Source: Nocardioides aromaticivorans
GTDB taxonomy: Bacteria > Actinomycetota > Actinomycetes > Propionibacteriales > Nocardioidaceae
Reading direction: 5' to 3'
Length of the DNA stretch: 64,000 nt
Assembly (NCBI RefSeq): GCF_013408525.1
Contig: NZ_JACBZM010000001.1
Location: forward strand, 3,038,001-3,102,000
Below the pieces are notes generated by a model. It had not been told where the DNA came from, ran no database searches, and saw only the letters and a list, made by a program, of their open reading frames with translations. Below, in pieces: positions 13,067 through 36,386 of this stretch. A program made the translations under genes and the position numbers. Numbering within the stretch: the first letter of the stretch is position 1; each line of letters opens with the position of its first letter.

Positions 13067-13202
13067 CGCCCGCCGCCCCTGTCCCTCGACCCCCACAGCA
13101 GCACCCGCACCACCAGCACGACCAGCACGACCAGGGCCGAACGCCCGGGGACCCGCCCCGGAACCGATGGAGCGCAATCCGTCACCAACGAAGGGAATCG
13201 TG

Positions 13203-19200: not shown

Positions 19201-19292
19201 CCAGGTTCCGGGTCCTCGCCTCCGGCATCCGGAGCACCGTGGTGAGGACCGCTCTCACGGACCTCGCCCGCCGGCTGGATGCCCAGCTGTAG
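13203..19292 (+). CDS. Secreted multidomain ThuA - sorbosone/glucose dehydrogenase - PKD - carbohydrate-binding protein
   Basis: A 2029-residue exported protein. Start: ATG at 13203 with AAGGGA upstream, giving a signal peptide (MKNVITRLRKGSR, hydrophobic core, cut near AAAAEPAP). Approximate domains are ThuA-like (80-300), a six-bladed glucose/sorbosone dehydrogenase-like propeller (312-750), PKD (750-840), a His-rich module (841-945), CBM6-like (950-1085), PKD (1087-1173), and two homologous about 200-residue jelly-roll modules (1184-1383 and 1394-1593). Ig-like repeats with DEAGNV motifs (1600-1950) and a C-terminal helical module resembling FIMAH (1953-2029) complete it. ThuA-type proteins act in trehalose/3-keto-sugar metabolism; the propeller family includes PQQ sugar dehydrogenases. 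An extracellular enzyme attacking plant or microbial glycans is likely; its substrate is unknown. Confidence 0.9.
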   Translation: MKNVITRLRKGSRATLGTTVAMIVSLPLGAAALAVPAAAAEPAPAAVASAEGPATAKSPAEAAPPSNAVPWTADEVAAAAEADEFDALVFSKTAAFRHSNIDEGITAIQQLGTANGFNVTATEDAAAFTDENLAQYEVVIFLSTTGDVLNEAQQGAFERYIQAGGGYAGIHAASDTEYSWPWYGNLVGSYFNNHPAGTPTATVKVEDPAHASTAGIDRRWERTDEWYNFRTNPRGKVHVLASMDETTYAPGGGAMGAEHPIAWCQDYDGGRSWYTGMGHTEASFTDAKFLKHILGGIKTAAGVVPSDCKATLEPSFEKVALDENTSNPMELDIADDGRVFYIDRNGAVRIILTNGSVVTAGTIPVYTGQEFGLLGIALDPNFSTNNWVYLYYSPTGSTPTDRIARYTMSGNTLQLDSATTILDVPTQRDQCCHAGGSMEFDKDGNLYLATGDNTNPFDSGGYTPIDERPGRSAWDAQRTAGNTNSLNGKVLRIKPLPAGGYSIPAGNLFDEASDTDQKTRPEIYAMGFRNPFRIGLDEQNNHLLVADYGPDAGSVSDTRGPNGRVEWNVLAEPGNYGWPYCVGDNAAYNDYNFASSTAGAAFNCANPVNDSPNNTGRTQLPPAKRAVMWQSNNGSITGTPEIGASGAPMTSGTYSYDADLVSDRKWPAYFDSKAIWADWNNSRLFTVQMNEGGTGYTDINRFLPNLPMVRPHALQFGPDGALYMIEWGSGFNGNNADSGIYRIDYVEGNRAPVARATTDKTSGPAPLTVQFDGSDSFDPDTGDATGMSYAWDFDGDGDTDATTPTGSHTYTEAGNYTARLTVTDEGGRTGTTNIDIVAGNTAPTVELLAPPDGGFFDFGDTLKYEVKVTDPEDGAIDCDRVVVQPGLGHDQHSHDYEQYHGCSGSLALPGDVGHVGANIFGTIKATYTDDGAGAAGELTGVDGIVVHTKHKEAEFFDETGRTGTGTGTAGVTTQTTTDSGGGLNVTGVETGDWFRWDVMNLTGITGAKLRVASTTTGAEFAIRQGSPTGTTIGTVTVPNTGGAQTFQDVSTTFTGATTDSAPLYFVATTGGANVNWIEFAGRGITDNQPPTVAIEASTLRGEAPLPVQFTSTVNDPDGDTPVEYEWDFGDNATSTEANPSHTFTTPGKYVVSLTATDARGAKSNRTLEVTVLQALDICFSGRSDDFVGDALDTDRWNRSVRVDQSLTVADGTLNIPITATDIYQTTNTTPNIVLQDLPAGAFEATTRLTLPAVRSYQQAGLVVYGDDNNYLKLVYSGRSSSPDKASNVIQVAKEVNATASETNSANLGADFPDTVWLRISSTNGNAVTTSYSTDGATWTTLSTNRDLTGITAPKVGLLALGNQAAAVGITAQFDYFTLTPDDTAEPCAPDCLVENFDGNALGEGWDVVRPSGNLSVSGGSVKIPLEATDLYQGTNTARDLVLTDLPDGPFVVTTKVSAPINRSYQSAGLLLYGNDDNYIKHVFQGRSSDPSAASNIIQTAKEVGGTATETNTPGLGASFPSTVWLRLTSDDGEQVIGSYSTDGETWTEMSGGYDLTGITNPRVGLLAAANTANGAGITASFDWFTLGEDATCEPDGGEPTDTTAPTTTITVPAADGEAGWHTTRPSFTLTATDGAEGSGVASVEYRIAGGAWTPYTTAVEVSGEGERLVEFRATDEAGNVEETRSSTVKVDTVVPTVTADETGTRTKTLTLSASDATSGVDRIEYQVGTATTWSDYSSPLSFEDVGTHVVRYRAVDVAGNVSAVGTSTVEVGPITAPKVTVTTDPAAPNGRKGWFAGPVTVTLTGTGGDGDLTLEYRTGKGSWTTYTAPFRITKDGVTKLEARARDEAGTVSAVVGKTFKIDDTAPALSVSGIANGAQLSVATVRTVQVTAADPTSGVVSRSVRLDGKVVASRTRIDALVLRTGTHRLAVVVTDEAGNQRTRTVTFKVVATYAGGRALVDRLDRENRIGARLAGKLESALITAQRADGRGDERQASQALTRFRVLASGIRSTVVRTALTDLARRLDAQL

Positions 19293-19570: not shown

Positions 19571-20578
19571 ATGGCACGCCCGATCACCCTGTTCACCGGC
19601 CAGTGGGCCGACCTGCCCTTCGAGGAGGTCTGCAGTCTCGCCTCCGAGTGGGGGTACGACGGCCTGGAGATCGCCTGCTGGGGCGACCACCTCGACCCGT
19701 GGCGGGCCGCCGAGGACGACGCCTACGTCCAGGAGAAGCTCGACCTGCTCGAGAAGTACAACCTCCGCACCTGGGCCATCTCCAACCACCTGACCGGCCA
19801 GGCCGTCTGCGACGACCCGATCGACGGGCGCCACCAGGCGATCCTCTCCGACCGGGTCTGGGGCGACGGCGACGCCGAGGGCGTGCGCCGGCGCGCGGCC
19901 GAGGAGATCACGATGACCGCGCGCAGCGCGCAGCGGCTGGGCGTGAAGACCGTCATCGGCTTCACCGGCTCGGCCATCTGGAAGTACGTCGCCATGTTCC
20001 CGCCCGCGACCGAGGAGATGGTGGCCGCCGGCTACCGCGACTTCGCCGACCGCTGGAACCCGATCCTCGACGTGTTCGACGAGTGCGGCGTCCGCTTCGC
20101 CCACGAGGTGCACCCCTCCGAGATCGCCTACGACTACTGGACCACGGTCGCGACCCTCGACGCGATCGGCCACCGCGAGGCCTTCGGCCTCAACTGGGAC
20201 CCGTCGCACTTCGTGTGGCAGGACCTCGACCCGGTCGGCTTCCTCTGGGACTTCAAGGACCGGATCTACCACGTCGACTGCAAGGACGCGAAGAAGCAGG
20301 TCGGCAACGGCCGCAACGGCCGAATGGGCTCGCACCTGCCGTGGGCCGACCCGCGTCGCGGCTGGGACTTCGTCTCGACCGGGCACGGCGACGTCCCGTG
20401 GGAGGCGTCCTTCCGGATGCTCAACACGATCGGGTACGACGGCCCCATCTCGGTCGAGTGGGAGGACGCCGGCATGGACCGCCTCGTCGGCGCCCCCGAG
20501 GCGCTCGCGTTCGTCCGTCGCCTCGCCTTCGACCCGCCGAGCGCGGCGTTCGACGCGGCCTTCTCCTCCTCGTCGTGA
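19571..20578 (+). CDS. Sugar phosphate isomerase/epimerase (AP endonuclease 2-type TIM barrel, IolE/xylose-isomerase-like)
   Basis: A 335-residue TIM-barrel enzyme. It opens with [16 protein letters not shown] and [17 protein letters not shown]. Metal-binding residues of the fold are visible in [27 protein letters not shown] and SVEWED. Relatives isomerise, epimerise or dehydrate sugars and keto-inositols, often beside Gfo/Idh/MocA and ThuA-type genes. That combination occurs here and supports a role in keto-sugar processing. GAGGAGAC lies just upstream. Its stop is close to or overlaps the next gene. Confidence 0.92.
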
Positions 20579-20592
20579 GGCCGGGACCGGTC

Positions 20593-21549
20593 ATGCAGGC
20601 AGCGTCGGCGGACCTCGGGGCGACGGCCGTCGCGCCGCTGGACCTGCGGTCGCGGCGCGGCGAGCTCGGGCTCTCCGCGCCGGACGTCGCGAGGTCGGTC
20701 GGCGTGCAGACCGCGACGGTGCTGCGCTGGGAGCGCGGGGAGAGGCTGCCCGGGCCGAGCGTCATCGACCGCCTCGCCCAGGTGCTCGCGGCCGACCGTG
20801 CCGCGGTGGTCCGCTTCTTCGACGCGCACCGTCCTCCGGCCGCCCCGAGGACGCGGGTCAGGGCGACCGGGCTGCGTGGCCTACGGCGCCGGCAGGGCTG
20901 GTCGGCCGCGTACGTCGCCGACCGGCTGGGCGTGCCCGTGGCGACCGTCTTCAACTGGGAGGCGGGCCGGGCGGGCATGCCGGTCGCCATGGTCCCCCGT
21001 GTCGTGGACCTCATGAGCGGGCGCGACGACGCCCTCACGCCGCACACCGTGCGCACCCTGCTCACCCGCCCCCGGGCGCAGCGGCCGATGCGGCACGGGC
21101 CGCTGCGCCGGGCGCGGGGGAGGCGGGGGCTCTCGCAGCAGCGCCTCGCCGACGAGCTCGGGGTCTCCCGCCAGCTCGTGGGGTGCTGGGAGCGCGGCCT
21201 CGCGCCGCACATCGCCCACCAGCGCCGGCTCGCCCGCGTCCTCGGCACCGACGTCGCGACGGTCAGCGGGTGGTTCGCCACCCCGCCGCCGATCGGACTC
21301 CGGCCGGCCCTCTGGCGCCCCGGCGACCTGGGCCAGGTGCTGCGGGACCTCCGCGCGTGGAGCGGCCTGCGGCAGTGCGACGTCGCCCGGCACTGCGGCC
21401 GCTCGACCGCGACGGTCCGGGCATGGGAGACGGGGCGCACGGTGCCCCCGGCCGGGCAGCGCGAGCTGCTCGCGGACCTCTTCCGGCTGCCGCCGACGGC
21501 CTTCGACGCGGCACTCCCGCAGGCGCCGGGCGGGGGAGACGAGCGATGA
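20593..21549 (+). CDS. Protein made of four tandem XRE-type helix-turn-helix domains
   Basis: A 318-residue protein with four helix-turn-helix units and no other recognisable domain. Unit 1, about residues 16-76: APDVARSVGVQTATVLRWERG. Unit 2, about 95-145: AAYVADRLGVPVATVFNWEAG. Unit 3, about 170-230: QQRLADELGVSRQLVGCWERG. Unit 4, about 245-305: QCDVARHCGRSTATVRAWETG. Each unit ends in the W-E-x-G signature of XRE proteins and is followed by a 'RLA..L' helix. Start: ATG 20593; an in-frame GTG at 20575 overlapping the previous stop (GTGA) would add six residues. It is coupled to xylB by ATGA. A DNA-binding regulator of the surrounding sugar genes is likely but unproven. Confidence 0.85.
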   Translation: MQAASADLGATAVAPLDLRSRRGELGLSAPDVARSVGVQTATVLRWERGERLPGPSVIDRLAQVLAADRAAVVRFFDAHRPPAAPRTRVRATGLRGLRRRQGWSAAYVADRLGVPVATVFNWEAGRAGMPVAMVPRVVDLMSGRDDALTPHTVRTLLTRPRAQRPMRHGPLRRARGRRGLSQQRLADELGVSRQLVGCWERGLAPHIAHQRRLARVLGTDVATVSGWFATPPPIGLRPALWRPGDLGQVLRDLRAWSGLRQCDVARHCGRSTATVRAWETGRTVPPAGQRELLADLFRLPPTAFDAALPQAPGGGDER

Positions 21550-22937
21550 CACTCGTCCTCGGTGTCGACTCCTCGACCCAGTCCACCAAGGCCGTCCTCG
21601 TCGACGTCGACGACGGCATGGTCGTCGACTCGCGCACGGCGCCCCACCCCGCCGGCACCGAGGTCGATCCCCGGGCCTGGCTGGCGGCGTACGACGACGC
21701 GGCGGGGCCGCTGCTCCACCGCGCCGCCGCGGTGTCGGTCGCCGGCCAGCAGCACGGCATGGTCGCCCTCGACGCCGTGGGTGACCCGGTCCGTCCCGCC
21801 CTGCTGTGGAACGACATCCGCTCCGCGGGCGCGGCCCGCACGCTCGTCGAGGAGATGGGCGGTGCGCAGGCGTGTGCCGAGGCCGTCGGGAGCGTGCTGG
21901 TGGCGTCGTTCACCTCGACCAAGCTGCGCTGGCTCCGCGACCACGAGCCGGCCGCCGCCGACCGCGTGGCGGAGGTGCTCCTCCCGCACGACTTCGTCGC
22001 CCGGCACGCGGCGGCACCCGGGACGCGGTCCTTCACCGACCGCGGCGACGCGTCGGGGACGGGCTACTACGACACGGCCGGCGGCACCTGGCGCCCCGAC
22101 CTCCTGGCGGCGGCGCTCGGCCACGACGCCGCGCTGCCCGAGGTGGTGGCCGGCGGTGCCGTCGCGGCCACGACGCAGGACGGCGCCGTCGTCGCCGCGG
22201 GCACCGGCGACAACATGGGCGGTGCGCTGGGCATGGCGCTGGAGCCCGGTGACCTCCTCGTCTCGGTGGGGACGAGCGGCGTGGTCTCCGCCATCAGCCC
22301 CCGCCCGGTCGCGGACGGGTCCGGTGTCGTCACCGGCTTCGCCGACGCCCACGCCGGCTTCCTGCCGATGGTCACGACCATGAACGCCGCCGGGATCCTC
22401 GACCTCCAGGCGCGCTGGCTCGGCGTCGACCACGCCGCGCTCGCCTCGCTCGCGCTGTCCGCGCCGTGGGGGTCCGGGGGAGTGAGCCTGCTGCCCTACT
22501 ACGGGGGAGAGCGCACGCCGAACCGCCCCGACGCGGTCGGGACCTGGCACGGCCTGACCTCCACGACGACCCGTGCCGAGCTCGCCCGAGCGGCCTTCGA
22601 GGCCCTGCTCTGCTCGCTCGCCGACGCCGTCGACCAGCTCATCGCCACCACCGGCCTCGAGCCGAACCGCCTGTTCCTGGTCGGTGGTGCCACCCGCAGC
22701 CCCGCCCTCCGGGCGATGGCGCCGGCCCTGCTCGGCCGCGCCGTGACGCTCCCGCCCCCCGGTGAGTACGTCGCCCTCGGCGCCGCCCGCCAGGCGGCAT
22801 GGGCCCTCGCCGGCACCGCCGACCCGCCGTCGTGGGGACGGCGCTCCGTCGAGGAGCTGGCCCCGCCCGGCGACAGCGACGAGGCAGCAGCCGCCGAGGT
22901 GCGGGCGGCGTACGCCCGTCTCCGCGACCGCACCTGA
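21546..22937 (+). CDS. xylB: Xylulokinase (FGGY carbohydrate kinase)
   Basis: Phosphorylates D-xylulose with ATP to xylulose-5-phosphate for the pentose phosphate pathway. It has 463 residues. The phosphate loop GVDSSTQSTKAVL and substrate loop GQQHGMVALD match XylB, along with the adenosine motif LVGGATRSPALRAMAPALLG. GTSGVVS corresponds to the phosphate-2 region. The ATG at 21546 overlaps the four-HTH gene stop. It completes the xylose-to-pentose-phosphate route begun by xylA. The next gene starts 45 bases on, so transcription may continue into the ebo-like cluster. Confidence 0.95.
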   Translation: MTLVLGVDSSTQSTKAVLVDVDDGMVVDSRTAPHPAGTEVDPRAWLAAYDDAAGPLLHRAAAVSVAGQQHGMVALDAVGDPVRPALLWNDIRSAGAARTLVEEMGGAQACAEAVGSVLVASFTSTKLRWLRDHEPAAADRVAEVLLPHDFVARHAAAPGTRSFTDRGDASGTGYYDTAGGTWRPDLLAAALGHDAALPEVVAGGAVAATTQDGAVVAAGTGDNMGGALGMALEPGDLLVSVGTSGVVSAISPRPVADGSGVVTGFADAHAGFLPMVTTMNAAGILDLQARWLGVDHAALASLALSAPWGSGGVSLLPYYGGERTPNRPDAVGTWHGLTSTTTRAELARAAFEALLCSLADAVDQLIATTGLEPNRLFLVGGATRSPALRAMAPALLGRAVTLPPPGEYVALGAARQAAWALAGTADPPSWGRRSVEELAPPGDSDEAAAAEVRAAYARLRDRT

Positions 22938-22981: not shown

Positions 22982-24133
22982 ATGACCAGCAACGACCTTC
23001 CCGTGAACGCCCCGACGACCGGCAACACCGGCGTGTGGTTCATCGGTGCGCGCGGCTCGGTCGCGACGACCGCGGTGGTGGGTGCCCTCGGCGCGAGCCA
23101 CGGGCTGGTCCCTGCGACGGGGCTCGTGACCGAGCTGCCCGAGCTCCACCCGGAGGGGCTCCCCGACCTGTCCAGCCTGTTCTTCGGTGGGCACGAGGTC
23201 GGCGGTGGGTCGCTGGCCAAGAAGGCCGAGGCGCTCGTGGCGGGCGGCGTGCTCCCGGCGGCCGTCGTCAGCGCCGTGGCGGCTGACCTGGAGGCCGTCG
23301 ACGTGGCGATCCGGCCGGGGCACGTCGCGGGCGAGGAGACCGCTGCCGCCGCCGTCGAACGGCTCGCCGCCGACATCTCCGGGTTCCGGGAGCGGCACCG
23401 GCTCGACCGGGTCGTCGTGGTCGACGTCGCCAGCACCCAGCCGCCGGTCGACGACCCGGTGCAGGTGCGGGGCGTCACGGACGGCCTGCCGGTCACCGCG
23501 GTCTACGCGCTCGCCGCGTTCCGGGCCGGGGCGTCGTACGTCTCGTTCACGCCCAGCCCGTGCCTGCGCCTGCCGGTGGTGCTGGAGGCAGCCGAGCGCA
23601 GCGGGCTTCCCTACGCGGGCTGCGACGGCAAGACGGGGGAGACCCTGGTGAAGTCGGCGCTCGCACCGATGTTCGCGATGCGCGCCCTCGACCTGCGCTC
23701 CTGGACGTCGATCAACCTCCTCGGTGGCGGCGACGGCGCGACCCTGGCGGACCCCGCCGCGGCGCGGAGCAAGACGGTCGCCAAGCGCAGCGGCCTCGAC
23801 GCGATCGTCGGCCGGCCGGTCCCGGGCCCGATGCACATCGACAACGTCGAGGACCTCGGCGAGTGGAAGACGGCCTGGGACCACGTCCGGTTCGACGGCT
23901 TCCTCGGCACGCGGATGACCCTGCAGTTCACCTGGCAGGGCTGCGACTCGGCCCTGGCCGCGCCACTCGTCCTCGACCTGGTGCGCCTGATGTCCACCGC
24001 GCACGCGGCCGGCCGGACCGGGCCGCAGGCCGAGCTCGCCTTCTTCTTCAAGGACCCCGTCGGTGCGACGGAGCACCGGCTCTCCGAGCAGTGGCGGGCG
24101 CTGGTCGAGTGGCGTGAGGGGCTGGACGCGTGA
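22982..24133 (+). CDS. Inositol-3-phosphate synthase-like NAD-dependent cyclase
   Basis: A 383-residue member of the myo-inositol-1(3)-phosphate synthase family. The N-terminal Rossmann motif GVWFIGARGSVATTAVVGAL is followed by the central SINLLGGGDGATLADP, where the family binds nicotinamide and phosphate. The catalytic region has YAGCDGKTGETLVKSALAPMF, and MHIDNVEDLGEWKTAWDHV comes near the end. MIPS cyclises glucose-6-phosphate. Here it heads an ebo-type operon that lacks EboD (a dehydroquinate-synthase-like sugar cyclase), so it may make a specialised cyclitol phosphate rather than housekeeping inositol. ATG at 22982 follows a GAGG; the stop overlaps the next gene as GTGA. Confidence 0.88.
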   Translation: MTSNDLPVNAPTTGNTGVWFIGARGSVATTAVVGALGASHGLVPATGLVTELPELHPEGLPDLSSLFFGGHEVGGGSLAKKAEALVAGGVLPAAVVSAVAADLEAVDVAIRPGHVAGEETAAAAVERLAADISGFRERHRLDRVVVVDVASTQPPVDDPVQVRGVTDGLPVTAVYALAAFRAGASYVSFTPSPCLRLPVVLEAAERSGLPYAGCDGKTGETLVKSALAPMFAMRALDLRSWTSINLLGGGDGATLADPAAARSKTVAKRSGLDAIVGRPVPGPMHIDNVEDLGEWKTAWDHVRFDGFLGTRMTLQFTWQGCDSALAAPLVLDLVRLMSTAHAAGRTGPQAELAFFFKDPVGATEHRLSEQWRALVEWREGLDA

Positions 24134-25008
24134 CCGCCCTGCCTGCCGCACGGGACCTGGCCGAGCTGGTCCGGCTGCCGGCTGCGCTGACGGTGCCGGG
24201 CGACGCGTGGTCCGGGGCCGCGTGGGCCGGGACGTCCGCCGCCGGCAGCGGGCTGATGCCGGTCGGCTCCGTGCTCCTGTACTGGTCGGGCATGGCGCTC
24301 AACGACTGGGCCGACCGAGCGGTCGACGCCGTCGAGCGGCCCGAGCGGGTCATCCCGTCCGGTCGCGTGCAGGCGCCGACGGCCCTGGCGATCGCGGCCG
24401 GCCTCGGCGTCGCCGGCGTGGCCGTGACCGCCGCGGTGGGTGGGCGCCGGGCACTGCGGGTCAGCGTCCCGCTCGCCGCGCTCGTCGCCACCTACGACGT
24501 CCTCGCCAAGGACTCACCTGCCGGGCCCGTCGTCATGGCCTCGACGCGGGGGCTCGACGTCCTGCTCGCCGCTGCGGCCGCCCCCGGCGCGGCGGCCCGA
24601 CCCGCCGCTGCCGTGGCCGTCCACACGGCCGGGGTCACCCTGCTCAGCAGGGGAGAGGTGCACGGCGCGACGCCGGCGACGGCAGGCGCCGCCCTCGCCG
24701 CCACGGGCACCGCGCTCGGCATCCTGGCGTCGTCACTGCGCCGGGGGTCCGGGATCCCGCCCGGCCGGCGGCGTACCGCCGCGGCGTTCGCGCTCCTCTA
24801 CGCAGCCCGGGTCGGTGTCGCACAGGCCCGCGCGGCCGCGTCCCCCGATGCCGGTACGGTCCGGGCCGCGACCGGCGCCGGCATCGGCGGCCTGACCTTC
24901 CTCCAGGCGGCCTGGCTCGCGGCTCGCGGCCGGTTCCTCCCGGCGGTCGTCGTGGCCGGCGCGAGCCCCGCCTTCCGTCGGGCGGCGCGGGCGGTGAGCC
25001 CGACATGA
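24130..25008 (+). CDS. eboC: UbiA-family prenyltransferase (EboC-like)
   Basis: A membrane prenyltransferase of 292 residues with many hydrophobic segments. The first Asp-rich motif is visible as NDWADRAVDAVERPERVIPSG, the UbiA N-D-x2-D-x3-D site that binds prenyl diphosphate through magnesium. The second site is weaker (ATYDVLAKD). It corresponds to EboC of ebo clusters, and I recall a related Streptomyces family named after SCO3242. The polyprenyl synthase at 29980 could supply its isoprenoid donor; the acceptor might be the product of the neighbouring cyclase. GTG start overlaps the previous stop, and the end overlaps the next ATG. Confidence 0.85.
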   Translation: MTALPAARDLAELVRLPAALTVPGDAWSGAAWAGTSAAGSGLMPVGSVLLYWSGMALNDWADRAVDAVERPERVIPSGRVQAPTALAIAAGLGVAGVAVTAAVGGRRALRVSVPLAALVATYDVLAKDSPAGPVVMASTRGLDVLLAAAAAPGAAARPAAAVAVHTAGVTLLSRGEVHGATPATAGAALAATGTALGILASSLRRGSGIPPGRRRTAAAFALLYAARVGVAQARAAASPDAGTVRAATGAGIGGLTFLQAAWLAARGRFLPAVVVAGASPAFRRAARAVSPT

Positions 25009-25874
25009 CGGTGCGCCTCGGCTACGGCCTCAACGGGTTCGCCGGCCACCGGCTGGCCGACGCGTGCGCCGTCGTCTCCTCGATCGGCTACGAGGGCGTG
25101 GGCCTCACCCTCGACCAGCCGCACCTCGACCCCTTCGGCGACCTTCCCGGCCAGGTCGCCCAGGCGCGCCGCTGCCTGGAGGCGAACGGCCTCGCATCGG
25201 TCGTCGAGACCGGGTCGCGCTACGTGCTCGACCCCTGGCACAAGCACGAGCCGACGCTGGTCAGCGACGAGGGGCGCGAGCGCCGTGTCGAGCTGCTCCG
25301 CCGTGCGGTGCGCATCGCCTTCGAGCTCGGCTCGGAGGCCGTCTCCTGCTGGTCGGGCACGGCGCCCGCGGGCACCGGCCCGGAGGCGCTGTGGCAGCGG
25401 GTGGTCGACGGACTCGGCCCGGTCCTCGACGACGCGGCCGACCTCGGCGTCAGCGTCTGCGTCGAGCCCGAGCCGGGGATGTTCCTGGCGACCCTCGACG
25501 ACGTCCTCGCCCTCCGGGAGCGGCTCGGTCGTCCCGAGCACCTGCGGGTGACCCTCGACCTGGGCCACCTCGTCTGCAACGAGCCGCGGACCCCTGCGGA
25601 CACCGTGCGGCAGGCAGGCGCGCTCCTCGGCAACGTCCAGGTCGACGACATGGTCCGCGACGTCCACGAGCACCTCGAGCTGGGGACGGGCGAGCTCGAC
25701 CTCGAAGCGGTGCTGGGCGCCCTCCTGGAGATCGGGTACGACGGCCTCGCCTGCGTCGAGCTGCCCCGGCACTCGCACGCCGCCCCTGCGGTGGCGGCGT
25801 CGAGCATGGTGGCGCTCCGGGCCTCGCTTGCCCGCATCGGCCATGCGTCCGGCGTCGCCGGGGGTGTGCGATGA
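25005..25874 (+). CDS. TIM-barrel sugar phosphate isomerase/epimerase-like protein of the ebo-like operon
   Basis: A 289-residue AP-endonuclease-2-type TIM barrel. Seen are LGYGLNGFAGHRLADACAVVSSIGYEGVGLT, split by strand 1 and helix 1, then SVCVEPEPGMF (metal Glu), TLDLGHLVCNE (Asp/His), VQVDDMVRDVHEH (Asp/His), and CVELPRHSHAAP (Glu). The full set of expected metal ligands looks present, so it is probably an active isomerase or epimerase. It is a different gene from EboE at 27389, so this operon carries two TIM barrels. ATGA overlaps occur on both sides. Confidence 0.85.
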   Translation: MTVRLGYGLNGFAGHRLADACAVVSSIGYEGVGLTLDQPHLDPFGDLPGQVAQARRCLEANGLASVVETGSRYVLDPWHKHEPTLVSDEGRERRVELLRRAVRIAFELGSEAVSCWSGTAPAGTGPEALWQRVVDGLGPVLDDAADLGVSVCVEPEPGMFLATLDDVLALRERLGRPEHLRVTLDLGHLVCNEPRTPADTVRQAGALLGNVQVDDMVRDVHEHLELGTGELDLEAVLGALLEIGYDGLACVELPRHSHAAPAVAASSMVALRASLARIGHASGVAGGVR

Positions 25875-26509
25875 CGTCCGTGGCGCTGCTGGTCCGTCCC
25901 GGTGAGCTCAGGGCCGTGCTCGGAGCAGGCCGGGCCGACGCGCTCGACGAGCTCGTGGCCGGGGTCGTGGCCGACCCGGGCACCCTCGGCCGGGTCTTCC
26001 CCGCGGCGGCCCGGCGTACGGCGCGCGGCGAGCTCCCCGGCGGCGGACGCATCGAGGACGCCGTCCGGGTGGAGCTGGTCGCGGCTGCCGCGTCGGTCCT
26101 GACCCCGGGCGCGCTCGTCGAGGAGCTGGGCCTCGTCTACCACCACGGCGACGCCGACGAGCGACGCGCCGTGCTGCTGGGGCTCTCCGCCCTCGACGAC
26201 CCGCAGGTCGACGGCTCGGCGATCCTCCTCGACGCGCTGCGGACCAACGACATCCGCCTGGTGACCGCCGCGATGGGCCGGCACGCGCGGACGCTGTCCC
26301 TCCACGACTGGCGCCACGGCGTCCTCAAGTGCCTCTTCGTCGGGGCTCCGCTGGCGCAGGTCGCCGACCTGGCCGAGCGCGCGGACGACGAGCTCGGCGC
26401 GATGGTCCGTCGCTACGTCCTCGAGCGGCAGGCAGCGGGCCGGTCGGTCCCCGACGACGCCCACCTCGTGCTCGAGCTGACCCACCCCACCCCTCCCCGG
26501 GAGTCCTGA
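25871..26509 (+). CDS. eboA: EboA-domain protein
   Basis: A 212-residue soluble, helix-rich, alanine/leucine-rich protein with no enzyme motif that I recognise. The conserved-looking stretch LLDALRTNDIRLVTAAMGRHA, followed by LHDWRHGVLKCLFVGAPL, fits the EboA family (it is normally paired with TatD-like EboB, as here). The repeated helices resemble a scaffold or adaptor. It begins at ATG 25871 overlapping the TIM-barrel stop and is followed one base later by EboB. Its function in any ebo cluster is not known to me. Confidence 0.8.
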   Translation: MTSVALLVRPGELRAVLGAGRADALDELVAGVVADPGTLGRVFPAAARRTARGELPGGGRIEDAVRVELVAAAASVLTPGALVEELGLVYHHGDADERRAVLLGLSALDDPQVDGSAILLDALRTNDIRLVTAAMGRHARTLSLHDWRHGVLKCLFVGAPLAQVADLAERADDELGAMVRRYVLERQAAGRSVPDDAHLVLELTHPTPPRES

Positions 26510-26510
26510 C

Positions 26511-27392
26511 ATGCGCATCTTCGATCCCCACATCCACATGACCTCGCGCACGACCGACGACTACGAGCGGATGTACGACGCCGGCGTCCGCGCGCTCGTC
26601 GAGCCGGCCTTCTGGCTCGGGCAGCCTCGCACCAACGTCGGCTCCTTCACCGACTACTTCGACGCGCTGGTCGGCTGGGAGCGGTTCCGCGCAGCGCAGT
26701 TCGGCATCGCCCACCACTGCACGATCGCGCTCAACCCCAAGGAGGCCAACGACCCGCGCTGCACGGGGGTCCTCGACGTCCTGCCCCGCTACCTGGCCAA
26801 GGACGGCGTGGTCGCCGTCGGCGAGATCGGGTTCGACTCGATGACCGCGGAGGAGGAGAAGGCGTTCGTCCGGCAGCTCGAGCTGGCGGTCGAGTTCGAG
26901 CTGCCCGCGATGGTGCACACCCCGCACCGCGACAAGGAGGGCGGCACCCGGCGCACGCTGGAGCTCGTCGAGGCCTCCGGGCTCGCCCCGCACCGGGTCG
27001 TCGTCGACCACCTCAACGAGATGACGGTGGGGCAGGTCGCCGAGAGCGGCTGCTGGATGGGCTTCTCGATCTACCCGGACACCAAGATGGACGAGCACCG
27101 GATGGTGCGCATCCTCGAGGAGCGCGGCCTCGACCGGGTCCTCGTGAACTCCGCCGCCGACTGGGGCCGCAGCGACCCGCTCAAGACCGCCTCCACGGGC
27201 CGGGCGATGCTCGCCGCGGGCTTCTCCACGGACGACGTGGACCGGGTGCTGTGGCGCAACCCGCTGGAGTTCTTCGGGCAGAGCGGCCGGCTGCTGCTCG
27301 ACGACCTGACGGAGACCACTGGCGGCATGCCGGACGGGGTGTCGACCTTCGAGGGCAACTCCGTGCTCCGCGGGGCGAGGGCCGACGCATGA
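26511..27392 (+). CDS. eboB: TatD-family metal-dependent hydrolase (EboB)
   Basis: An amidohydrolase-superfamily TIM barrel of 293 residues. The opening metal motif is FDPHIHM (H-x-H after strand 1). Next come the bridging acid in VGEIGFD, PAMVHTPHRDKEGGTRRTLEL with a metal His, VVDHLNE, and NSAADWGRSDP with the last Asp. TatD proteins are nucleases, but the EboB subgroup is tied to the ebo operon and its substrate is unknown. ATG starts one base after the EboA stop; the end overlaps EboE as ATGA. Confidence 0.88.
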   Translation: MRIFDPHIHMTSRTTDDYERMYDAGVRALVEPAFWLGQPRTNVGSFTDYFDALVGWERFRAAQFGIAHHCTIALNPKEANDPRCTGVLDVLPRYLAKDGVVAVGEIGFDSMTAEEEKAFVRQLELAVEFELPAMVHTPHRDKEGGTRRTLELVEASGLAPHRVVVDHLNEMTVGQVAESGCWMGFSIYPDTKMDEHRMVRILEERGLDRVLVNSAADWGRSDPLKTASTGRAMLAAGFSTDDVDRVLWRNPLEFFGQSGRLLLDDLTETTGGMPDGVSTFEGNSVLRGARADA

Positions 27393-28555
27393 GGTTCCGC
27401 CACCCCGACGGCTCGGTCGTCCACCTCGCCTACGGCACCAACGTGCTGCCTGCGCAGGACGTCGACGGCATCGTGGCGCAGGCGTCGGGGCTCGGCGACC
27501 GGCTGCGCGCGCACCTCGACGTCGACCGCGTGGGGCTCGGCATGTGGTTGCCCGCGACGGCGGCGTACCGGCTGATCGCGGACCCGGGCGACCTGGAGCG
27601 GCTGCGCAAGAGCCTCGACCACCACGGGGTCGAGGTGGTCACCGTGAACGCCTTCCCCCACGCCGACTTCCAGGGCGAGGTCGTCAAGAAGGCCGTCTAC
27701 CACCCGGCGTGGAGCGAGCCCGAGCGGCTGCGCTACACCCTGGCGGCGGCACAGGTGCTGGCGGCGCTCCTGCCCGACGACGTCGACCGCGGGACGATCT
27801 CGACCCTGCCCCTGGGCTGGCGCGCGCCCTGGCTGGTGGACCGCCAGCACGCGGCGGAGCGCCATCTCGCCCAGCTCGCGGAGGGTCTCTCCACGATCGC
27901 CGGGGAGACCGGCCGCGCCGTCCGGGTCGGCCTCGAGCCGGAGCCCGGTTGTGCCGTCGAGACGGTCGACGAGGCCGTGGCCCGCCTCGCCGGGGTGGAC
28001 CGGGACTGGATCGGTGTCTGCCTCGACCTGTGCCACCTGGCCGTCGGCTTCGACACGGCCGCCGCCGCCCTCGAGCGACTCGACGAGGCGGGCCTGGCGG
28101 TGGTCAAGGCCCAGCCGGCTGCCGCGCTGGTCGTCGACGACCCCGGCGACACGACCACGCGCTCCGCGCTCGCGGCGTACGCCGAGGACCGCTTCCTCCA
28201 CCAGGTGCGCCAGGAGACCGGCGGCCGCCTGACCGGGCGCGACGACCTGCCCGACGCTCTCGACGGTCCGCGGAGCCTGCGCACCGGCCGGCCGTGGCGG
28301 GTCCACTTTCACGTGCCGGTGCACGCCGACCCGGCCCCGCCGCTGCGCAGCAGCCGCGACGAGCTGCGCGCCTCGCTGGCCGCCCTCGTGGGCGGGCCTC
28401 GCGCGCGCGTCCACCACCTGGAGGTCGAGACCTACACCTGGTCGGTCCTTCCCGGTGGCGGCCCGACCGACGACGACGCCTTCGCGGCAGCGCTCGCCGC
28501 CGAGCTCGCCTGGGTGCGCGCGGAGCTCCTCGACCTCGGCCTGACCGCCCTCTGA
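27389..28555 (+). CDS. eboE: Metabolite traffic protein EboE (TIM-barrel family)
   Basis: A 388-residue protein that matches the EboE family in its opening (HLAYGTNVLPAQDVDGIVAQ). It continues with VVTVNAFPHADFQGEVVKKAVYHPAW and with RVGLEPEPGCAVET and VCLDLCHLAVGF, the metal-ligand strands of the xylose-isomerase-like fold. The C-terminal third (TGRPWRVHFHVPVHA, EVETYTW) supplies further potential ligands. In cyanobacteria the ebo genes are reported to help move scytonemin precursors into the periplasm. The biochemical step of EboE is unknown. It overlaps EboB by ATGA. Confidence 0.88.
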   Translation: MRFRHPDGSVVHLAYGTNVLPAQDVDGIVAQASGLGDRLRAHLDVDRVGLGMWLPATAAYRLIADPGDLERLRKSLDHHGVEVVTVNAFPHADFQGEVVKKAVYHPAWSEPERLRYTLAAAQVLAALLPDDVDRGTISTLPLGWRAPWLVDRQHAAERHLAQLAEGLSTIAGETGRAVRVGLEPEPGCAVETVDEAVARLAGVDRDWIGVCLDLCHLAVGFDTAAAALERLDEAGLAVVKAQPAAALVVDDPGDTTTRSALAAYAEDRFLHQVRQETGGRLTGRDDLPDALDGPRSLRTGRPWRVHFHVPVHADPAPPLRSSRDELRASLAALVGGPRARVHHLEVETYTWSVLPGGGPTDDDAFAAALAAELAWVRAELLDLGLTAL

Positions 28556-28585
28556 ACCCATCCCCACGACCCCCTGGAGATCCCC

Positions 28586-29980
28586 ATGGACAAGCTCCTC
28601 GTCGCCGACGTCGTCGGCCTCACCCCCGACCTGCTCCAGCACATGCCCCGGCTCCAGCGCCTGGCGGCGAAGGGCTCGTCCGCGGTCCTCGACCCCGTGC
28701 TGCCGGCGGTCACCTGCTCGGTGCAGTCGACCTTCCTCACCGGCCTCACCCCGGCCGAGCACGGCATCGTCGGCAACGGGTGGTACTTCCGCGACCTCGG
28801 CGAGGTGCACCTGTGGCGCCAGCACAACCGCCTCGTCCAGGGCGAGAAGGTCTGGGAGACCATCCGGCGCCAGGTCCCCGACTACACCGTCGCCAACGTC
28901 TGCTGGTGGTACGCCATGGGTGCGTCGACCGACTGGACCGTCACGCCGCGGCCGATCTACTACGCCGACGGCAAGAAGGCGCCCGACTGCTACACCCGCC
29001 CGCCCGAGCTCCACGACGAGCTGGTGCACGAGCTGGGCGAGTTCCCCCTCTTCCAGTACTGGGGGCCGACTGCGTCCCTCCGCTCGACCGAGTGGATCGT
29101 CGGCGCGGCCCGCCGCCTCCTGCCGCGGGCCGACCTGACCCTCGCCTACCTCCCGCACCTCGACTACGACCTCCAGCGGTTCGGGCCCGACTCGGCCCAG
29201 GCCCGCCGGGCCGCGCACGACGTCGACGCGGCGCTGGCGCCCCTGCTCGACGACGCGGAGCTGATGGACGCGCGCGTGGTCGTCCTGTCCGAGTACGGCA
29301 TCACCCGGGCGGACACGCCGGTCGACATCAACCGGGCCCTGCGCGCCGCCGGCCTGCTGAACGTCCACACCCAGGACGGCATGGAGTACCTCGACCCCTG
29401 GACGTCGCGGGCCTTCGCCGTCGCCGACCACCAGGTCGCCCACGTGTACGTCGCCGACCCGACCGACCTCGAGCAGGTCGGCGCGCTGTGCGCGGGCGTG
29501 CGCGGCGTGGCGCAGGTGCTGGACCGGGCCGGCCAGGCCGCCGTCGGCCTCGACCACGAGCGTGCGGGCGAGCTCGTGCTGGTGGCGGAGCCGACCGCGT
29601 GGTTCACCTACTACTACTGGGAGGACGACGACCGGGCGCCGGACTTCGCGCGCGGCGTCGAGATCCACCGCAAGCCCGGCTACGACCCGGCCGAGCTCTT
29701 CTTCGACCCGAAGGACCGGCTGGTCAAGGCCCGCGCGGCCCTGACCCTGGCCCGCAAGGCCGCCGGCCTCCGCTACTCGATGAAGGTGGTGCCGCTCGAC
29801 CCGGCGCCGGTGCGGGGCACCCACGGTCGCCTTCCGCTCCGCGACGAGGAGGGGCCCATGGTGATCTGCGACCGGCCCGACACGCTGGGCAGCCGACTGG
29901 CCGCGACGCAGGTGCGGGACCTGCTGCTCGACCTGGCCGGCGCCAGCGCCGCGACCCCGACGGTGTCGACGGTGTCGTGA
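28586..29980 (+). CDS. eboF: Alkaline-phosphatase-superfamily nucleotide pyrophosphatase/phosphodiesterase (EboF)
   Basis: A 464-residue member of the type I phosphodiesterase/nucleotide pyrophosphatase group. Expected metal Asp in KLLVADVVGLTPD, nucleophile Thr in LPAVTCSVQSTFLTGLTPAEHGIVGNGW, and further ligands in LPHLDYDLQRFG and VVLSEYGITR. There is no signal peptide, so it is probably cytoplasmic or peripheral. In ebo clusters this gene ends the set; it may remove a phosphate or diphosphate from the pathway intermediate. The start has GGAG 7 bases upstream. The stop shares a base with the next start. Confidence 0.87.
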   Translation: MDKLLVADVVGLTPDLLQHMPRLQRLAAKGSSAVLDPVLPAVTCSVQSTFLTGLTPAEHGIVGNGWYFRDLGEVHLWRQHNRLVQGEKVWETIRRQVPDYTVANVCWWYAMGASTDWTVTPRPIYYADGKKAPDCYTRPPELHDELVHELGEFPLFQYWGPTASLRSTEWIVGAARRLLPRADLTLAYLPHLDYDLQRFGPDSAQARRAAHDVDAALAPLLDDAELMDARVVVLSEYGITRADTPVDINRALRAAGLLNVHTQDGMEYLDPWTSRAFAVADHQVAHVYVADPTDLEQVGALCAGVRGVAQVLDRAGQAAVGLDHERAGELVLVAEPTAWFTYYYWEDDDRAPDFARGVEIHRKPGYDPAELFFDPKDRLVKARAALTLARKAAGLRYSMKVVPLDPAPVRGTHGRLPLRDEEGPMVICDRPDTLGSRLAATQVRDLLLDLAGASAATPTVSTVS

Positions 29981-30945
29981 TGGTCGACGAGGTGCTGGGC
30001 GCGGTGCGTGAACGGCTCCGGACACCGCCGTCGTGCGGGGTCGCCGGCCTCGACCGCGTGGTCGCCGACGCCCTGCGCCCGGGCAAGCTGCTCAGGCCCG
30101 GGCTCGTGGTCGGCAGTGCGGCGGCGGCCGGCGCCGGGCTGGCCGACCGTGCCCTGCGGAACCGGGTGGTGCTGGCGGCGGAGGCGATGGAGCTGCTGCA
30201 CGTGGCCACGCTCGTCCACGACGACATCATCGACGGGTCCCCGCTCCGCCGCGGCCGGCCCTCGGTCGTCGCGAGCGCCGGTGTGGCGTCCGCGCTCGTC
30301 ATCGGTGACCTGCTCCTCGCCCGGGGCGCCCTCGCCGCGGCCGGCGCGGCGCCGAACGGCCCGCTCGTCTGGGCGCGTGCCCTGGCGTGCATGGCGAGGG
30401 GCCAGCTCCTCGAGGGCGATCTCCGGGGCGCTCCGTCGGTCGAGGCGCACCGGGAGTACGCCGCCCTCAAGACCGCCGAGCTGTTCCGGGCGAGTGCCGA
30501 GATCGGCGCCCTCGCGGTGGACGCCGAGCCGGACGTCGTCCGCGCGCACGGGGAGTTCGGGCTCCACTTCGGCATCGCCTTCCAGCATGTCGACGACCTG
30601 CTCGACGTGGTCGGCGACCCGGCCCGGACCGGCAAGCCGGCCGGCCTGGATGCCGCCAACGGCGTACCGACGACCGCCGCGCTCCTCCTCGAGGTGCCCT
30701 CGCCCGGTGGCCTCGCCACCCTGGTGGCCGCCGAGCTGGAGGACGCCTCGGCGTCGCTGCCCCCGGGGCGGGGCTCGGCCGAGCTCCGGGCCTGGGCGGC
30801 CGACGCCCTGCGCAGGACCCTCCACGCCGCCGACGACAGGCCCCGCCGCACGCTCGTCCAGCTCTCCGCCGTGCTGGACCGGTTCGAGCACGACATCCAC
30901 CCAGTCAGGGAGACCACGCCATGCACGCCTACGCCCGTCCTGTGA
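29980..30945 (+). CDS. Polyprenyl diphosphate synthase (trans-isoprenyl synthase)
   Basis: Builds an all-trans isoprenoid diphosphate from IPP and an allylic starter. Length 321 residues. The first Asp-rich motif is LVHDDIIDGSPLRRGRPS and the second is QHVDDLLDVVGD; GKLLRPGL near the N-terminus and GKPAGLDAANGVPT after the second motif are standard. The residues just before DDIID (LLHVATLVH) are small, which would permit long chains, but chain length cannot be fixed by eye. ATG at 29980 overlaps the EboF stop; an in-frame GTG three bases earlier is possible. A likely donor-maker for the UbiA enzyme at 24130. Confidence 0.9.
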   Translation: MVDEVLGAVRERLRTPPSCGVAGLDRVVADALRPGKLLRPGLVVGSAAAAGAGLADRALRNRVVLAAEAMELLHVATLVHDDIIDGSPLRRGRPSVVASAGVASALVIGDLLLARGALAAAGAAPNGPLVWARALACMARGQLLEGDLRGAPSVEAHREYAALKTAELFRASAEIGALAVDAEPDVVRAHGEFGLHFGIAFQHVDDLLDVVGDPARTGKPAGLDAANGVPTTAALLLEVPSPGGLATLVAAELEDASASLPPGRGSAELRAWAADALRRTLHAADDRPRRTLVQLSAVLDRFEHDIHPVRETTPCTPTPVL

Positions 30946-31451
30946 GCTCCAGCCGGCTCGTCCGCTGGGTCGCCGTCGCCCTGGTGGCCGCCCTGCTCGG
31001 CCTCCTGCCTGCACCTCCTGCGTCGGCCCACGACGAGCTCGTCTCCTCCGACCCCGCCGAGTCGAGCGTGGTCGAGACGCTGCCGTCGCGGGCCACCCTG
31101 ACCCTGAGCGGCAAGGTCCGCAAGGTCCGCTCGGTCACGGTGACCGGACCCGACGGCGACGTCGCCAACGGCAAGGCGACCTTCCGGGACGACGAGGTGC
31201 GCCAGAACCTGTGGTCCGGACCCGACGGCGAGTACGTACTCGCCTACGACGTCGTCTCGGCCGACGGCCACCAGGTCACCGGCGAGGTCCACTTCGAGGT
31301 CGGCCCGGTCTCCGGGCCGACGGACAGCGGACCGCGCGCCACGGTGAAGCAGGATGCCGGCGGTGGGCAGCGCGGCATCCTGCTGGTCGGTGTGGTGCTC
31401 CTGGCGGGTGCGGGCGGGCTGGTGGCGCTGCGGCGGCGCCGGCTCGGGTGA
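30921..31451 (+). CDS. CopC-domain copper-binding protein, exported and membrane anchored
   Basis: A 176-residue protein with a signal peptide cut after PASA, leaving His37 as the N-terminal residue (HDELVSSDPAES), the classic CopC copper ligand. A second ligand candidate is the His in SADGHQVTGEVHF. A C-terminal transmembrane helix (ILLVGVVLLAGAGGLVAL) is followed by RRRRLG, anchoring it outside the cell. It overlaps the polyprenyl synthase by 25 bases, so it is the last gene of the ebo-like operon. It could supply copper to an exported oxidase or simply be a passenger. Confidence 0.9.
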   Translation: MHAYARPVSSSRLVRWVAVALVAALLGLLPAPPASAHDELVSSDPAESSVVETLPSRATLTLSGKVRKVRSVTVTGPDGDVANGKATFRDDEVRQNLWSGPDGEYVLAYDVVSADGHQVTGEVHFEVGPVSGPTDSGPRATVKQDAGGGQRGILLVGVVLLAGAGGLVALRRRRLG

Positions 31452-34063: not shown

Positions 34064-34087
34064 GACGTGTCCGCCTCGGTCCTCGGG

Positions 34088-35104: not shown

Positions 35105-35161
35105 GGTGGTTCTCCCTTGGAGTGGTGCCGAGTGGTGCGGAGGGTGGTGGGTGGAGCGGGA

Positions 35162-36289: not shown

Positions 36290-36365
36290 CGTCGCTCCCG
36301 TGGTCGGGCGCCGGTGTGCCCGGCGCGGTCGGACCATCGTGGGACCGGGGTGTCCCGCGTCACAT

Positions 36366-36379
36366 TGGCAGAATTGCCA
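36366..36379. promoter_or_regulatory. Inverted repeat upstream of the deacetylase/ABC operon
   Basis: TGGCA GAAT TGCCA, 5-bp arms, about 80 bases upstream of the deacetylase ATG and just after the LuxR stop codon. It is an AT-richer patch in GC-rich DNA. It could bind the adjacent LuxR-type protein, but no second copy was found. Confidence 0.35.
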
Positions 36380-36386
36380 GTCTTCG

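What the first reader, a model, noticed from the sequence alone, without database searches (positions are those of the whole stretch)
22982..30945. Ebo-type metabolite-traffic cluster with a swapped cyclase and its own prenyl-donor synthase
Eight tightly overlapping genes encode a MIPS-like cyclase, UbiA prenyltransferase (EboC-like), a TIM barrel, EboA, EboB, EboE, EboF and a polyprenyl diphosphate synthase. In ebo clusters as I know them, EboD is a dehydroquinate-synthase-like, NAD-dependent sugar-phosphate cyclase. Here that gene is missing, and another NAD-dependent sugar-phosphate cyclase family stands first. I infer a non-orthologous replacement: a cyclitol phosphate is made, epimerised by the TIM barrels, prenylated by UbiA using the local donor, and dephosphorylated by EboF. 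That would be a prenylated-cyclitol carrier or lipid, a concrete model for a system whose chemistry is unknown.
Basis: partly seen in the sequence, partly recalled or inferred. Interest (0 to 1): 0.85.

Follow-up and report, generated by a model that had tools for sequence, protein, structure and literature searches.

The report
Inositol-type ebo metabolite cluster
This actinobacterium carries a version of the widespread but unsolved 'ebo' gene cluster in which the usual ring-making enzyme is replaced by one of the inositol-synthase family, a swap also found in many related bacteria and some salt-loving archaea, which gives a concrete handle on what the cluster makes.

Summary
Eight near-overlapping genes at 22982-30945 encode a MIPS-type cyclase, a UbiA prenyltransferase (SCO3242 family), a TIM barrel, EboA, EboB, EboE, EboF and a polyprenyl synthase; no EboD. 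The swap is general: in 394 sampled genomes of the class the ebo-type MIPS occurs in 84, all among the 90 with EboE over cut-off, linked in 80; in 80 genomes tested, no dehydroquinate-synthase-family gene lies within 79 kb of EboE on the same contig. This MIPS is a clade far from the housekeeping Ino1, which the genome also has, and keeps its catalytic lysines. Of 29 fetched non-actinobacterial clusters with EboE, EboF and UbiA, 28 have EboD, none MIPS. The MIPS type also occurs in three haloarchaea and on a Gemmatimonadota plasmid. Corrections: isoprenoid-cyclitol and lipid-carrier ideas are already in print (2016, 2018); the prenyl synthase is a recurrent minority add-on; EboF has lost most metal ligands of its superfamily, so dephosphorylation is doubtful. 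New lead: secreted GSDH/ThuA proteins lie beside 28 of 55 inspected actinobacterial loci. Verdict: new variant of a known kind; chemistry unproven, a prenylated hexose-derived cyclitol is the best guess.

The parts
22982..24133 (+). MIPS-type sugar-phosphate cyclase (383 aa), the gene that stands in for EboD
   Evidence: PF07994/PF01658; clade apart from housekeeping Ino1; catalytic positions kept; only 24.7 bits to the mycothiol Ino1 model with cut-off 638
24130..25008 (+). UbiA prenyltransferase, SCO3242 family (EboC counterpart)
   Evidence: NF045897 306.5 bits, cut-off 260; NDxxDxxxD at residue 58 and DVLAKD at 123
25005..25874 (+). TIM barrel (TIM1), xylose-isomerase-like; an extra gene tied to the MIPS type
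   Evidence: PF01261; detected in 55 of 58 inspected loci, no hit above 80 bits in 80 non-actinobacterial loci
25871..26509 (+). EboA-domain protein
   Evidence: NF035938 131.5 bits, cut-off 50; predicted all-helical, pLDDT 94.7
26511..27392 (+). EboB, TatD-like metal-dependent hydrolase
   Evidence: PF01026; 58% to Azospirillum EboB; HxH, E, H, H, D positions invariant in 12 rows
27389..28555 (+). EboE, TIM barrel
   Evidence: NF035939 379.5 bits, cut-off 250
28586..29980 (+). EboF, alkaline-phosphatase-superfamily protein with altered metal site
   Evidence: PF01663; fold match to Xac NPP, E 4.7e-20; ligand positions changed
29980..30945 (+). polyprenyl diphosphate synthase, local prenyl-donor synthase
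   Evidence: PF00348; DDIID and DDLLD motifs, Ala five residues before the first
30921..31451 (+). CopC-domain protein overlapping the synthase; possible ninth gene
   Evidence: PF04234 76.9 bits; 25-base overlap
21546..22937 (+). xylulokinase-like FGGY kinase, 44 bases upstream of MIPS
   Evidence: TIGR01312 380.9 bits, cut-off 380.25; gap
19571..20578 (+). upstream TIM barrel (upTIM), recurrent neighbour
   Evidence: PF01261, weak IolE similarity; in the stretch held of 19 of 58 inspected loci
13167..19292 (+). large protein ThuA + GSDH + PKD + CBM6 with a signal-like N-terminus, recurrent neighbour
   Evidence: Pfam; GSDH homologue in the stretch held of 28 of 55 inspected actinobacterial loci, this one included
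10707..11906 (+). Gfo/Idh/MocA oxidoreductase, recurrent neighbour
   Evidence: Pfam; 16 of 58 loci

Best explanation
This is a MIPS-type ebo cluster, a second form of the ebo pathway. Its first enzyme cyclises a hexose phosphate (probably glucose 6-phosphate) to a cyclitol phosphate, replacing the EboD ring. The ring is reworked by the TIM barrels and EboB, and the membrane enzyme UbiA joins a prenyl chain to it; here the chain is supplied by the local synthase, in most relatives by the general pool. The product would be a membrane-anchored prenylated cyclitol used in steps outside the cytoplasm, as the Nostoc ebo mutants suggest. Shown by sequence: gene set, order, swap, linkage, intact MIPS catalytic residues and UbiA motifs. 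Inferred: substrate, order of steps, prenylation of the cyclitol, and role. The stated confidence is for 'MIPS does the job of EboD in making the ring that UbiA prenylates'.
For: In 394 genomes of the class, ebo-type MIPS is in 84, EboE over cut-off in 90, SCO3242 UbiA over cut-off in 84; no genome has that MIPS or that UbiA without EboE; MIPS and EboE lie within 12 kb on one strand in 80 genomes. I set the MIPS threshold (299 bits) after seeing the gap to the next scores (205 bits and less, a third MIPS type and weaker); 9 further genomes have only such weaker matches. Order MIPS-UbiA-TIM1-EboA-EboB-EboE-EboF in 50 of 58 inspected loci, EboD in 0 of 58. Outside actinobacteria the reverse: of 80 loci fetched by EboB, 37 have EboD near and 0 MIPS; of the 29 with EboE, EboF and UbiA, 28 have EboD. 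All eight annotated non-actinobacterial bacterial plasmid loci that I fetched have a '3-dehydroquinate synthase' and no inositol-phosphate synthase in the stretch. MIPS sits with TIM1-like barrels, UbiA, EboB-like and EboF-like genes in three haloarchaea and on a Gemmatimonadota plasmid, there with EboE. Nine of ten active-site positions checked against the Archaeoglobus enzyme are kept in 40 of 40 ebo MIPS; position 259 is not. Polyprenyl synthases recur beside the cluster in four families, at different places.
Against: No product is known. G028 has the cluster without MIPS or TIM1 (a different MIPS type lies elsewhere), and second cluster copies in G057 and G301 lack MIPS. In G136 a close relative of the window's MIPS stands beside Gfo-ThuA-GSDH-upTIM with no ebo gene found in the 20 kb (L192), so it may serve the sugar module. 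TIM1 was not detected in 3 of 58 loci. Of the 80 non-actinobacterial loci, 43 show neither cyclase in the stretch held, and the four haloarchaeal clusters include one without MIPS in the stretch. The products of EboD (predicted) and MIPS would differ in phosphate and carbon number, yet EboB and EboF stay 55-58% identical across types. Ubi-297, an EboC relative, farnesylated quinolines in vitro; the acceptors named in the parts I read were all aromatic, so cyclitols seem untested (PMC9235831).
Confidence: 0.55

Rival explanations
1. The MIPS belongs to the neighbouring sugar module (ABC transporter, binding protein, Gfo/Idh/MocA, ThuA-GSDH, upTIM, FGGY kinase) and feeds inositol metabolism; its seat in the ebo operon is convenience, and the ebo product no longer needs an EboD-like ring.
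For: G136:C11 has Gfo-ThuA-GSDH-upTIM-MIPS with no ebo gene found in 20 kb, and that MIPS groups with the window's. upTIM, Gfo and GSDH recur beside MIPS-type loci: 19 of 58, 16 of 58 and 28 of 55.
Against: GSDH and upTIM were not found in about half or more of the inspected stretches while MIPS stays first in the operon (50 of 58 in the full order); none of the 394 sampled genomes has this MIPS without EboE.
Confidence: 0.17
2. The product is a redox cofactor or electron carrier for secreted sugar- or pigment-oxidising enzymes rather than a translocation carrier: the ring is dehydrated towards an aromatic or quinone-like head before prenylation.
For: GSDH-family proteins beside 28 of 55 inspected actinobacterial loci, 14 genera, and beside a haloarchaeal one, though the own genome has only about four GSDH genes; ScyD/ScyE-family genes directly upstream of MIPS in three loci; a PQQ dehydrogenase two genes from the Salipiger EboB; EboC relatives prenylate aromatic acceptors in vitro (PMC9235831).
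Against: GSDH was not found beside the 80 EboB loci (one weak ThuA hit). ScyD/ScyE adjacency is confined to one genus and one plasmid (listing, cut at the weak end). In Nostoc, ebo mutants keep the monomer in the cytoplasm, which points to transport (PMC6282210). Loci were chosen for spread, not drawn at random.
Confidence: 0.18
3. The MIPS-like enzyme makes another carbocycle, such as the five-membered cyclitol phosphate of aristeromycin synthesis, not an inositol phosphate.
For: The five-membered-cyclitol-phosphate synthase 6k96 is a relative (E 7e-15), so the family is known to make more than one ring.
Against: Nearest solved relative is the Archaeoglobus MIPS (E 1.5e-58), far above 6k96, and its catalytic residues are kept.
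Confidence: 0.1

Closest known systems
ebo cluster (eboABCDEF; Yurchenko 2016 PMC5133447, Klicki 2018 PMC6282210)
   Same: EboA, EboB, EboE, EboF and a UbiA prenyltransferase in one operon with a sugar-phosphate cyclase; same predicted class of product. The 2016 paper already notes a few clusters without EboD and actinobacterial EboA fused to a xylose-isomerase-like domain (data not shown there)
   Different: EboD replaced by a MIPS-family cyclase; an extra TIM barrel; UbiA of the SCO3242 family; sometimes a polyprenyl synthase
SCO3242/SCO3243 genes of the Streptomyces coelicolor CDA region (PMC3610822, passages seen)
   Same: SCO3243 is listed as myo-inositol phosphate synthase and SCO3242 as putative transferase, neighbours by number; SCO3242 names the NCBIfam family of the window's UbiA
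   Different: Listed there as CDA cluster genes; the passages do not call them ebo genes. The region itself was not fetched
Archaeal-type myo-inositol-1-phosphate synthase (Archaeoglobus fulgidus, PDB 1u1i)
   Same: Nearest solved structure to the cyclase; catalytic lysines kept
   Different: Position 259 is Gly in the window; here the gene leads a biosynthetic operon
Haloarchaeal TatD-TIM-UbiA-TIM and MIPS-EboF clusters (Halobaculum, Halocatena, Natronococcus plasmids)
   Same: MIPS, UbiA, EboB-like, EboF-like and TIM1-like genes together, no EboD
   Different: No EboA and no EboE annotated or matched; two TIM1-like barrels; other gene order, divergent in two of three

Membership tests
canonical ebo cluster | EboA, EboB, EboE, EboF encoded together | tested here: met
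   EboA domain and EboE over curated cut-offs; EboB, EboF 55-58% to an EboD-type cluster
canonical ebo cluster | EboC: UbiA of the EboC family | tested here: not met
   121 bits against cut-off 250; instead SCO3242 family 306.5 against 260
canonical ebo cluster | EboD: DHQ-synthase-like sugar-phosphate cyclase | tested here: not met
   None in the cluster; single PF01761 gene 1.8 Mb away; nearest on the same contig in 80 genomes 79,974 bases
canonical ebo cluster | role in metabolite translocation | not testable with these tools
   needs mutants
housekeeping actinobacterial Ino1 (TIGR03450) | score over curated cut-off and grouping with housekeeping copies | tested here: not met
   24.7 bits against 638; 15 housekeeping rows form another clade
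MIPS superfamily, archaeal type | catalytic Lys274, 278, 306, 367, Asn255, Asp261, Asp332 (Archaeoglobus numbering; roles recalled) | tested here: met
   kept in 40 of 40 ebo MIPS
MIPS superfamily, archaeal type | converts glucose 6-phosphate to inositol 1-phosphate | not testable with these tools
   needs an assay
NPP-type two-metal phosphodiesterase (for EboF) | fold | tested here: met
   model pLDDT 91; best match Xac NPP, E 4.7e-20
NPP-type two-metal phosphodiesterase (for EboF) | Asp/His metal ligands (ligand numbering recalled) | tested here: not met
   Four of six ligands changed: Asp to Val (Ala once), His to Gln or Leu, Asp-His to Glu-Tyr, in 13 of 13 and 29 of 29; nucleophile Thr, one Asp and one His kept, the last placed by a weak alignment

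The most novel reading that the evidence does not exclude
The ebo pathway exists in two forms across Bacteria and Archaea, one starting from an EboD ring and one from a MIPS ring plus a TIM barrel; both make a prenylated, enolised or aromatised cyclitol that is a membrane cofactor or carrier for secreted oxidising enzymes (ScyD/E-type in cyanobacteria, GSDH/ThuA-type in actinobacteria and haloarchaea). EboF, its metal site remodelled, is a binding or non-canonical enzyme rather than a phosphodiesterase.
Probability: 0.15. Interest if true: 0.85.

Novelty: new variant of a known kind. Interest (0 to 1): 0.6.

Why it matters
The ebo cluster is widespread, and each ebo gene deleted in Nostoc was needed for scytonemin export (PMC6282210), yet its product is unknown. 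A natural swap of its first enzyme for MIPS, a family with known chemistry and assays, turns 'unknown ring' into a testable one: label inositol or glucose and look for a labelled prenyl lipid that depends on the UbiA gene. The same swap in haloarchaea and the recurrent secreted oxidoreductase-like proteins beside it suggest where to look for the role. The altered metal site of EboF warns against the published reading of it as a phosphate hydrolase.

Tried and rejected
Considered and rejected: (1) MIPS as the only Ino1 of the genome: a housekeeping copy exists. (2) EboD near the cluster: no. (3) EboE alone as a marker of ebo: five genomes (G040, G068, G177, G256, G295) have EboE over cut-off but neither SCO3242 UbiA over cut-off nor such a MIPS. 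In three of them (G068, G177, G295) keto-acid dehydrogenase genes lie near EboE; for G040 only one neighbour was scanned (a DNA polymerase) and for G256 none. I read these as not-ebo neighbourhoods. (4) ScyD/ScyE genes as general partners: over cut-off in 35 of 80 genomes, but in the listed rows beside MIPS only in G354 and G241, one genus, and in Streptomyces camelliae. (5) EboA as a known fold: no PDB match at E 0.001; the best weak hits are mostly HEAT/TOG-like helical repeats. (6) The first MIPS tree used wrong reading frames for housekeeping rows and is discarded; one search replaces it. (7) A first DHQ-synthase distance check used only part of the listed rows; one search uses all 110. 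The MIPS listing was cut, so adjacency is taken.

Dropped before counts: 8 genomes with EboE only below cut-off are not in the 90; genomes with UbiA matches below cut-off (167 have any, 84 over) and MIPS matches under 299 bits (93 genomes have any, 84 over) are not counted. The genome searches score only the first few candidates per genome, so misses are possible.

Literature: searches joining MIPS or inositol with ebo, or using the NCBI names, gave 0 papers each; SCO3242/SCO3243 gave 2 papers, both transcriptomics by title; 'prenylated cyclitol' and like terms gave 3, among them PMC5133447 and PMC6092422, the latter seen as a listing only; some searches were listings. The library holds open-licence PubMed Central papers only. 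Figure 3 of PMC9235831, which shows Saccharomonospora clusters, could not be seen, so a MIPS gene may be drawn there. Papers seen: PMC5133447 abstract, sections 12 (part 1 of 2), 15, 16, 17, 21 and passages; PMC6282210 abstract, section 6 (part 1 of 2), section 8; PMC9235831 parts 1-2 of 4; PMC3610822 passages; all others search listings only.
Full report
WHAT IS THERE. The window lies in a 5.26 Mb genome; named relatives of its proteins are mostly Nocardioides, so the genus is inferred. Eight genes at 22982-30945 run on the plus strand with gaps of -4, -4, -4, +1, -4, +30 and -1 bases. Pfam and NCBIfam give MIPS-type cyclase, UbiA prenyltransferase of the SCO3242 family, TIM barrel (here TIM1), EboA domain, TatD-like hydrolase (EboB), EboE, Phosphodiest-family protein (EboF) and polyprenyl synthase. 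A CopC-domain gene overlaps the last by 25 bases.

IS EBOD REALLY REPLACED? The genome has one DHQ-synthase-family gene, 1.8 Mb away, and two MIPS genes, one in this cluster. I sampled 394 genomes of the same class. EboE scores over its cut-off in 90, the SCO3242-family UbiA in 84, and a MIPS like the window's (at least 299 bits, a threshold set at a gap in the scores) in 84. Every genome with that MIPS or that UbiA has EboE; six EboE genomes lack the MIPS. MIPS and EboE lie within 12 kb on the same strand in 80 genomes; in four others they are on different contigs, and in one of these, G191, a fragment of MIPS remains in the cluster and a full copy lies elsewhere. Among loci read in full, EboD is in 0 of 58. 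The sample leans to some genera, so these are not independent events; by genus, 32 of 137 had an EboE match at E 0.001. Searches score only a few candidates per genome, so misses are possible.

OUTSIDE ACTINOBACTERIA. A scan of named genomes with an EboB alignment led by the Gemmatirosa sequence kept the best 80 of 582 loci, with record titles from Gemmatimonadetes, Thermomicrobiales, Abditibacterium, Acidobacteria, Chthonomonas, Rhodothermales, Verrucomicrobia and Planctomycetota; cyanobacteria and most Bacteroidota are thus not in this sample. EboD lies near EboB in 37, MIPS in 0, and 43 show neither in the stretch held. Of the 29 with EboE, EboF and UbiA, 28 have EboD. Eight annotated plasmid clusters of proteobacteria, a cyanobacterium, a bacteroidete and a deinococcus all carry '3-dehydroquinate synthase' and no inositol-phosphate synthase in the stretch. 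So in what I read EboD and MIPS exclude each other. Two cases widen the MIPS type: a Gemmatirosa plasmid with TIM1, MIPS, UbiA, EboF, EboB, EboE and an upTIM relative, and three haloarchaeal plasmids with TatD, two TIM barrels, UbiA, MIPS and EboF, without EboA, EboE or EboD. A fourth haloarchaeon, Haladaptatus, has the set without MIPS in the stretch. Two Halomarina plasmids have a MIPS; in the annotated one no ebo gene is near. I found no report of this; searches gave no paper, in a library limited to open-licence texts.

THE CYCLASE. In a tree of 63 rows the actinobacterial ebo MIPS form one group (94/99 support, 36 rows plus a copy from G136), and 15 housekeeping Ino1 form another across a very long branch. 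The ebo group lies on the archaeal-type side with haloarchaeal and Archaeoglobus MIPS; long rows make the finer placing unsure, and the Gemmatirosa MIPS does not fall inside the actinobacterial group. The nearest solved structure is Archaeoglobus MIPS, E 1.5e-58; the five-membered-cyclitol synthase 6k96 gives 7e-15 and the tubercle-bacillus Ino1 4.9e-7. Nine of ten positions checked, four lysines among them, are kept in 40 of 40 ebo MIPS; position 259 is changed; the roles are recalled. An active cyclase on a hexose phosphate is likely.

THE OTHER STEPS. UbiA keeps the first Asp-rich motif and has DVLAKD as a second; across 12 UbiA of both types N58, D59, D62 and D66 are invariant and the second motif varies. 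TIM1 resembles IolI, epimerases and an archaeal protein of unknown role, so isomerisation, epimerisation or dehydration are all open. EboB keeps HxH, E, H, H and D in 12 rows. EboF folds like Xac NPP (pLDDT 91, E 4.7e-20), but of seven NPP active-site positions only Thr, one Asp and one His remain; the rest are Val, Gln or Leu, Glu and Tyr in 13 of 13 EboF of both cluster types and archaea and, with one Ala, in 29 of 29 of a second set that shares only the window with the first. Ligand numbering is recalled, and the kept His rests on a weak alignment. EboA is predicted all-helical with high confidence and has no significant PDB match.

PRENYL DONOR. A polyprenyl synthase lies by the cluster in 8 of 58 inspected loci: the own genus, and three other families where the gene sits upstream of MIPS or downstream of EboF. 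Seven were rechecked as PF00348, the window's. Two of five own-genus loci have it. Repeated, differently placed association supports a prenyl step; Ala five residues before DDIID suggests a chain longer than C20 (rule recalled, weak). It is not a fixed part.

A NEIGHBOUR THAT MAY TELL THE ROLE. Upstream in the window lie a sugar-type ABC ATPase, a binding protein, Gfo/Idh/MocA, a 2041-aa protein with ThuA, GSDH, PKD and CBM6 domains, upTIM and an FGGY kinase. A GSDH homologue lies in the stretch held of 28 of 55 inspected actinobacterial loci, 14 genera, and beside the Natronococcus cluster; the own genome has about four GSDH genes. upTIM is found in 19 of 58 and Gfo in 16 of 58. The loci were picked for spread, not at random, and flanks differ in length. 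Against a tight link: G136 has MIPS with this module and no ebo gene found in 20 kb (L192), and the loci show no GSDH. ScyD/ScyE-family genes stand directly upstream of MIPS in one plasmid and two genomes of one genus, which echoes the scytonemin setting of cyanobacterial ebo.

HOW IT MOST LIKELY WORKS. MIPS makes a cyclitol phosphate from a hexose phosphate (likely); TIM1, EboE and EboB remodel it (inferred); UbiA prenylates it at the membrane (inferred from family and from the recurrent prenyl synthases); the lipid serves a step outside the cytoplasm (inferred from Nostoc mutants, PMC6282210). Against: Ubi-297, an EboC relative, farnesylates quinolines in vitro (PMC9235831), and EboB/EboF similarity across types asks for products that converge although the rings would start from different sugars. 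TIM1, found in 55 of 58 MIPS-type loci and with no hit above 80 bits in the 80 loci, is the natural candidate for bringing the rings to a common form.

VERDICT. A real, general and, as far as searched, undescribed variant of ebo. Interest 0.6; the bolder reading, a two-domain pathway for a redox or carrier lipid serving secreted oxidases, 0.85 if true, probability 0.15.

Noticed in passing
window 20593-21549 +: A 318-aa protein with four helix-turn-helix stretches of HTH_31/HTH_3 type in a row between upTIM and the FGGY kinase; an unusual regulator layout.
   Followed up: partly
window 13167-19292 +: 2041-aa protein joining ThuA, GSDH, PKD, CBM6 and FIMAH domains behind a signal-like N-terminus.
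   Followed up: partly
window 31575-36487 -: A second sugar-type ABC transporter (permease, ATPase, Tat-signal binding protein) runs towards the cluster's end, next to a histone-deacetylase-family gene.
   Followed up: no
L192 (G136:C11:30001-50000): Gfo, ThuA-GSDH, upTIM and a MIPS 78% identical to the window's, with no ebo gene found, while the same genome has a full ebo cluster with a different MIPS on another contig.
   Followed up: partly
L034, L036-L039: EboE-like genes over the NCBIfam cut-off (NF035939) in genomes without UbiA or MIPS of the ebo type, three of five beside 2-oxoacid dehydrogenase genes; the EboE model may catch a second family.
   Followed up: partly
L054, L055, L057 and G093:C1:15963: A third MIPS type (38-44% to the window's) in a few actinobacteria; the three put in the tree group with a Methylobacterium plasmid gene.
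   Followed up: no
L077 533-2579: Two Gfo/Idh/MocA genes directly before EboD in the Ketogulonicigenium cluster, and a sugar epimerase after EboB.
   Followed up: no
L078, L080, L081: Ferritin-like protein genes near EboD-type clusters in Mycetohabitans, Gloeothece and Aureibacter.
   Followed up: no
L074 4435-5226; L195: A Tat-signal protein without Pfam match stands before MIPS in Streptomyces NBC_01592, three genes from an adenylation-domain gene's neighbourhood, and a 65% identical one in L195.
   Followed up: no
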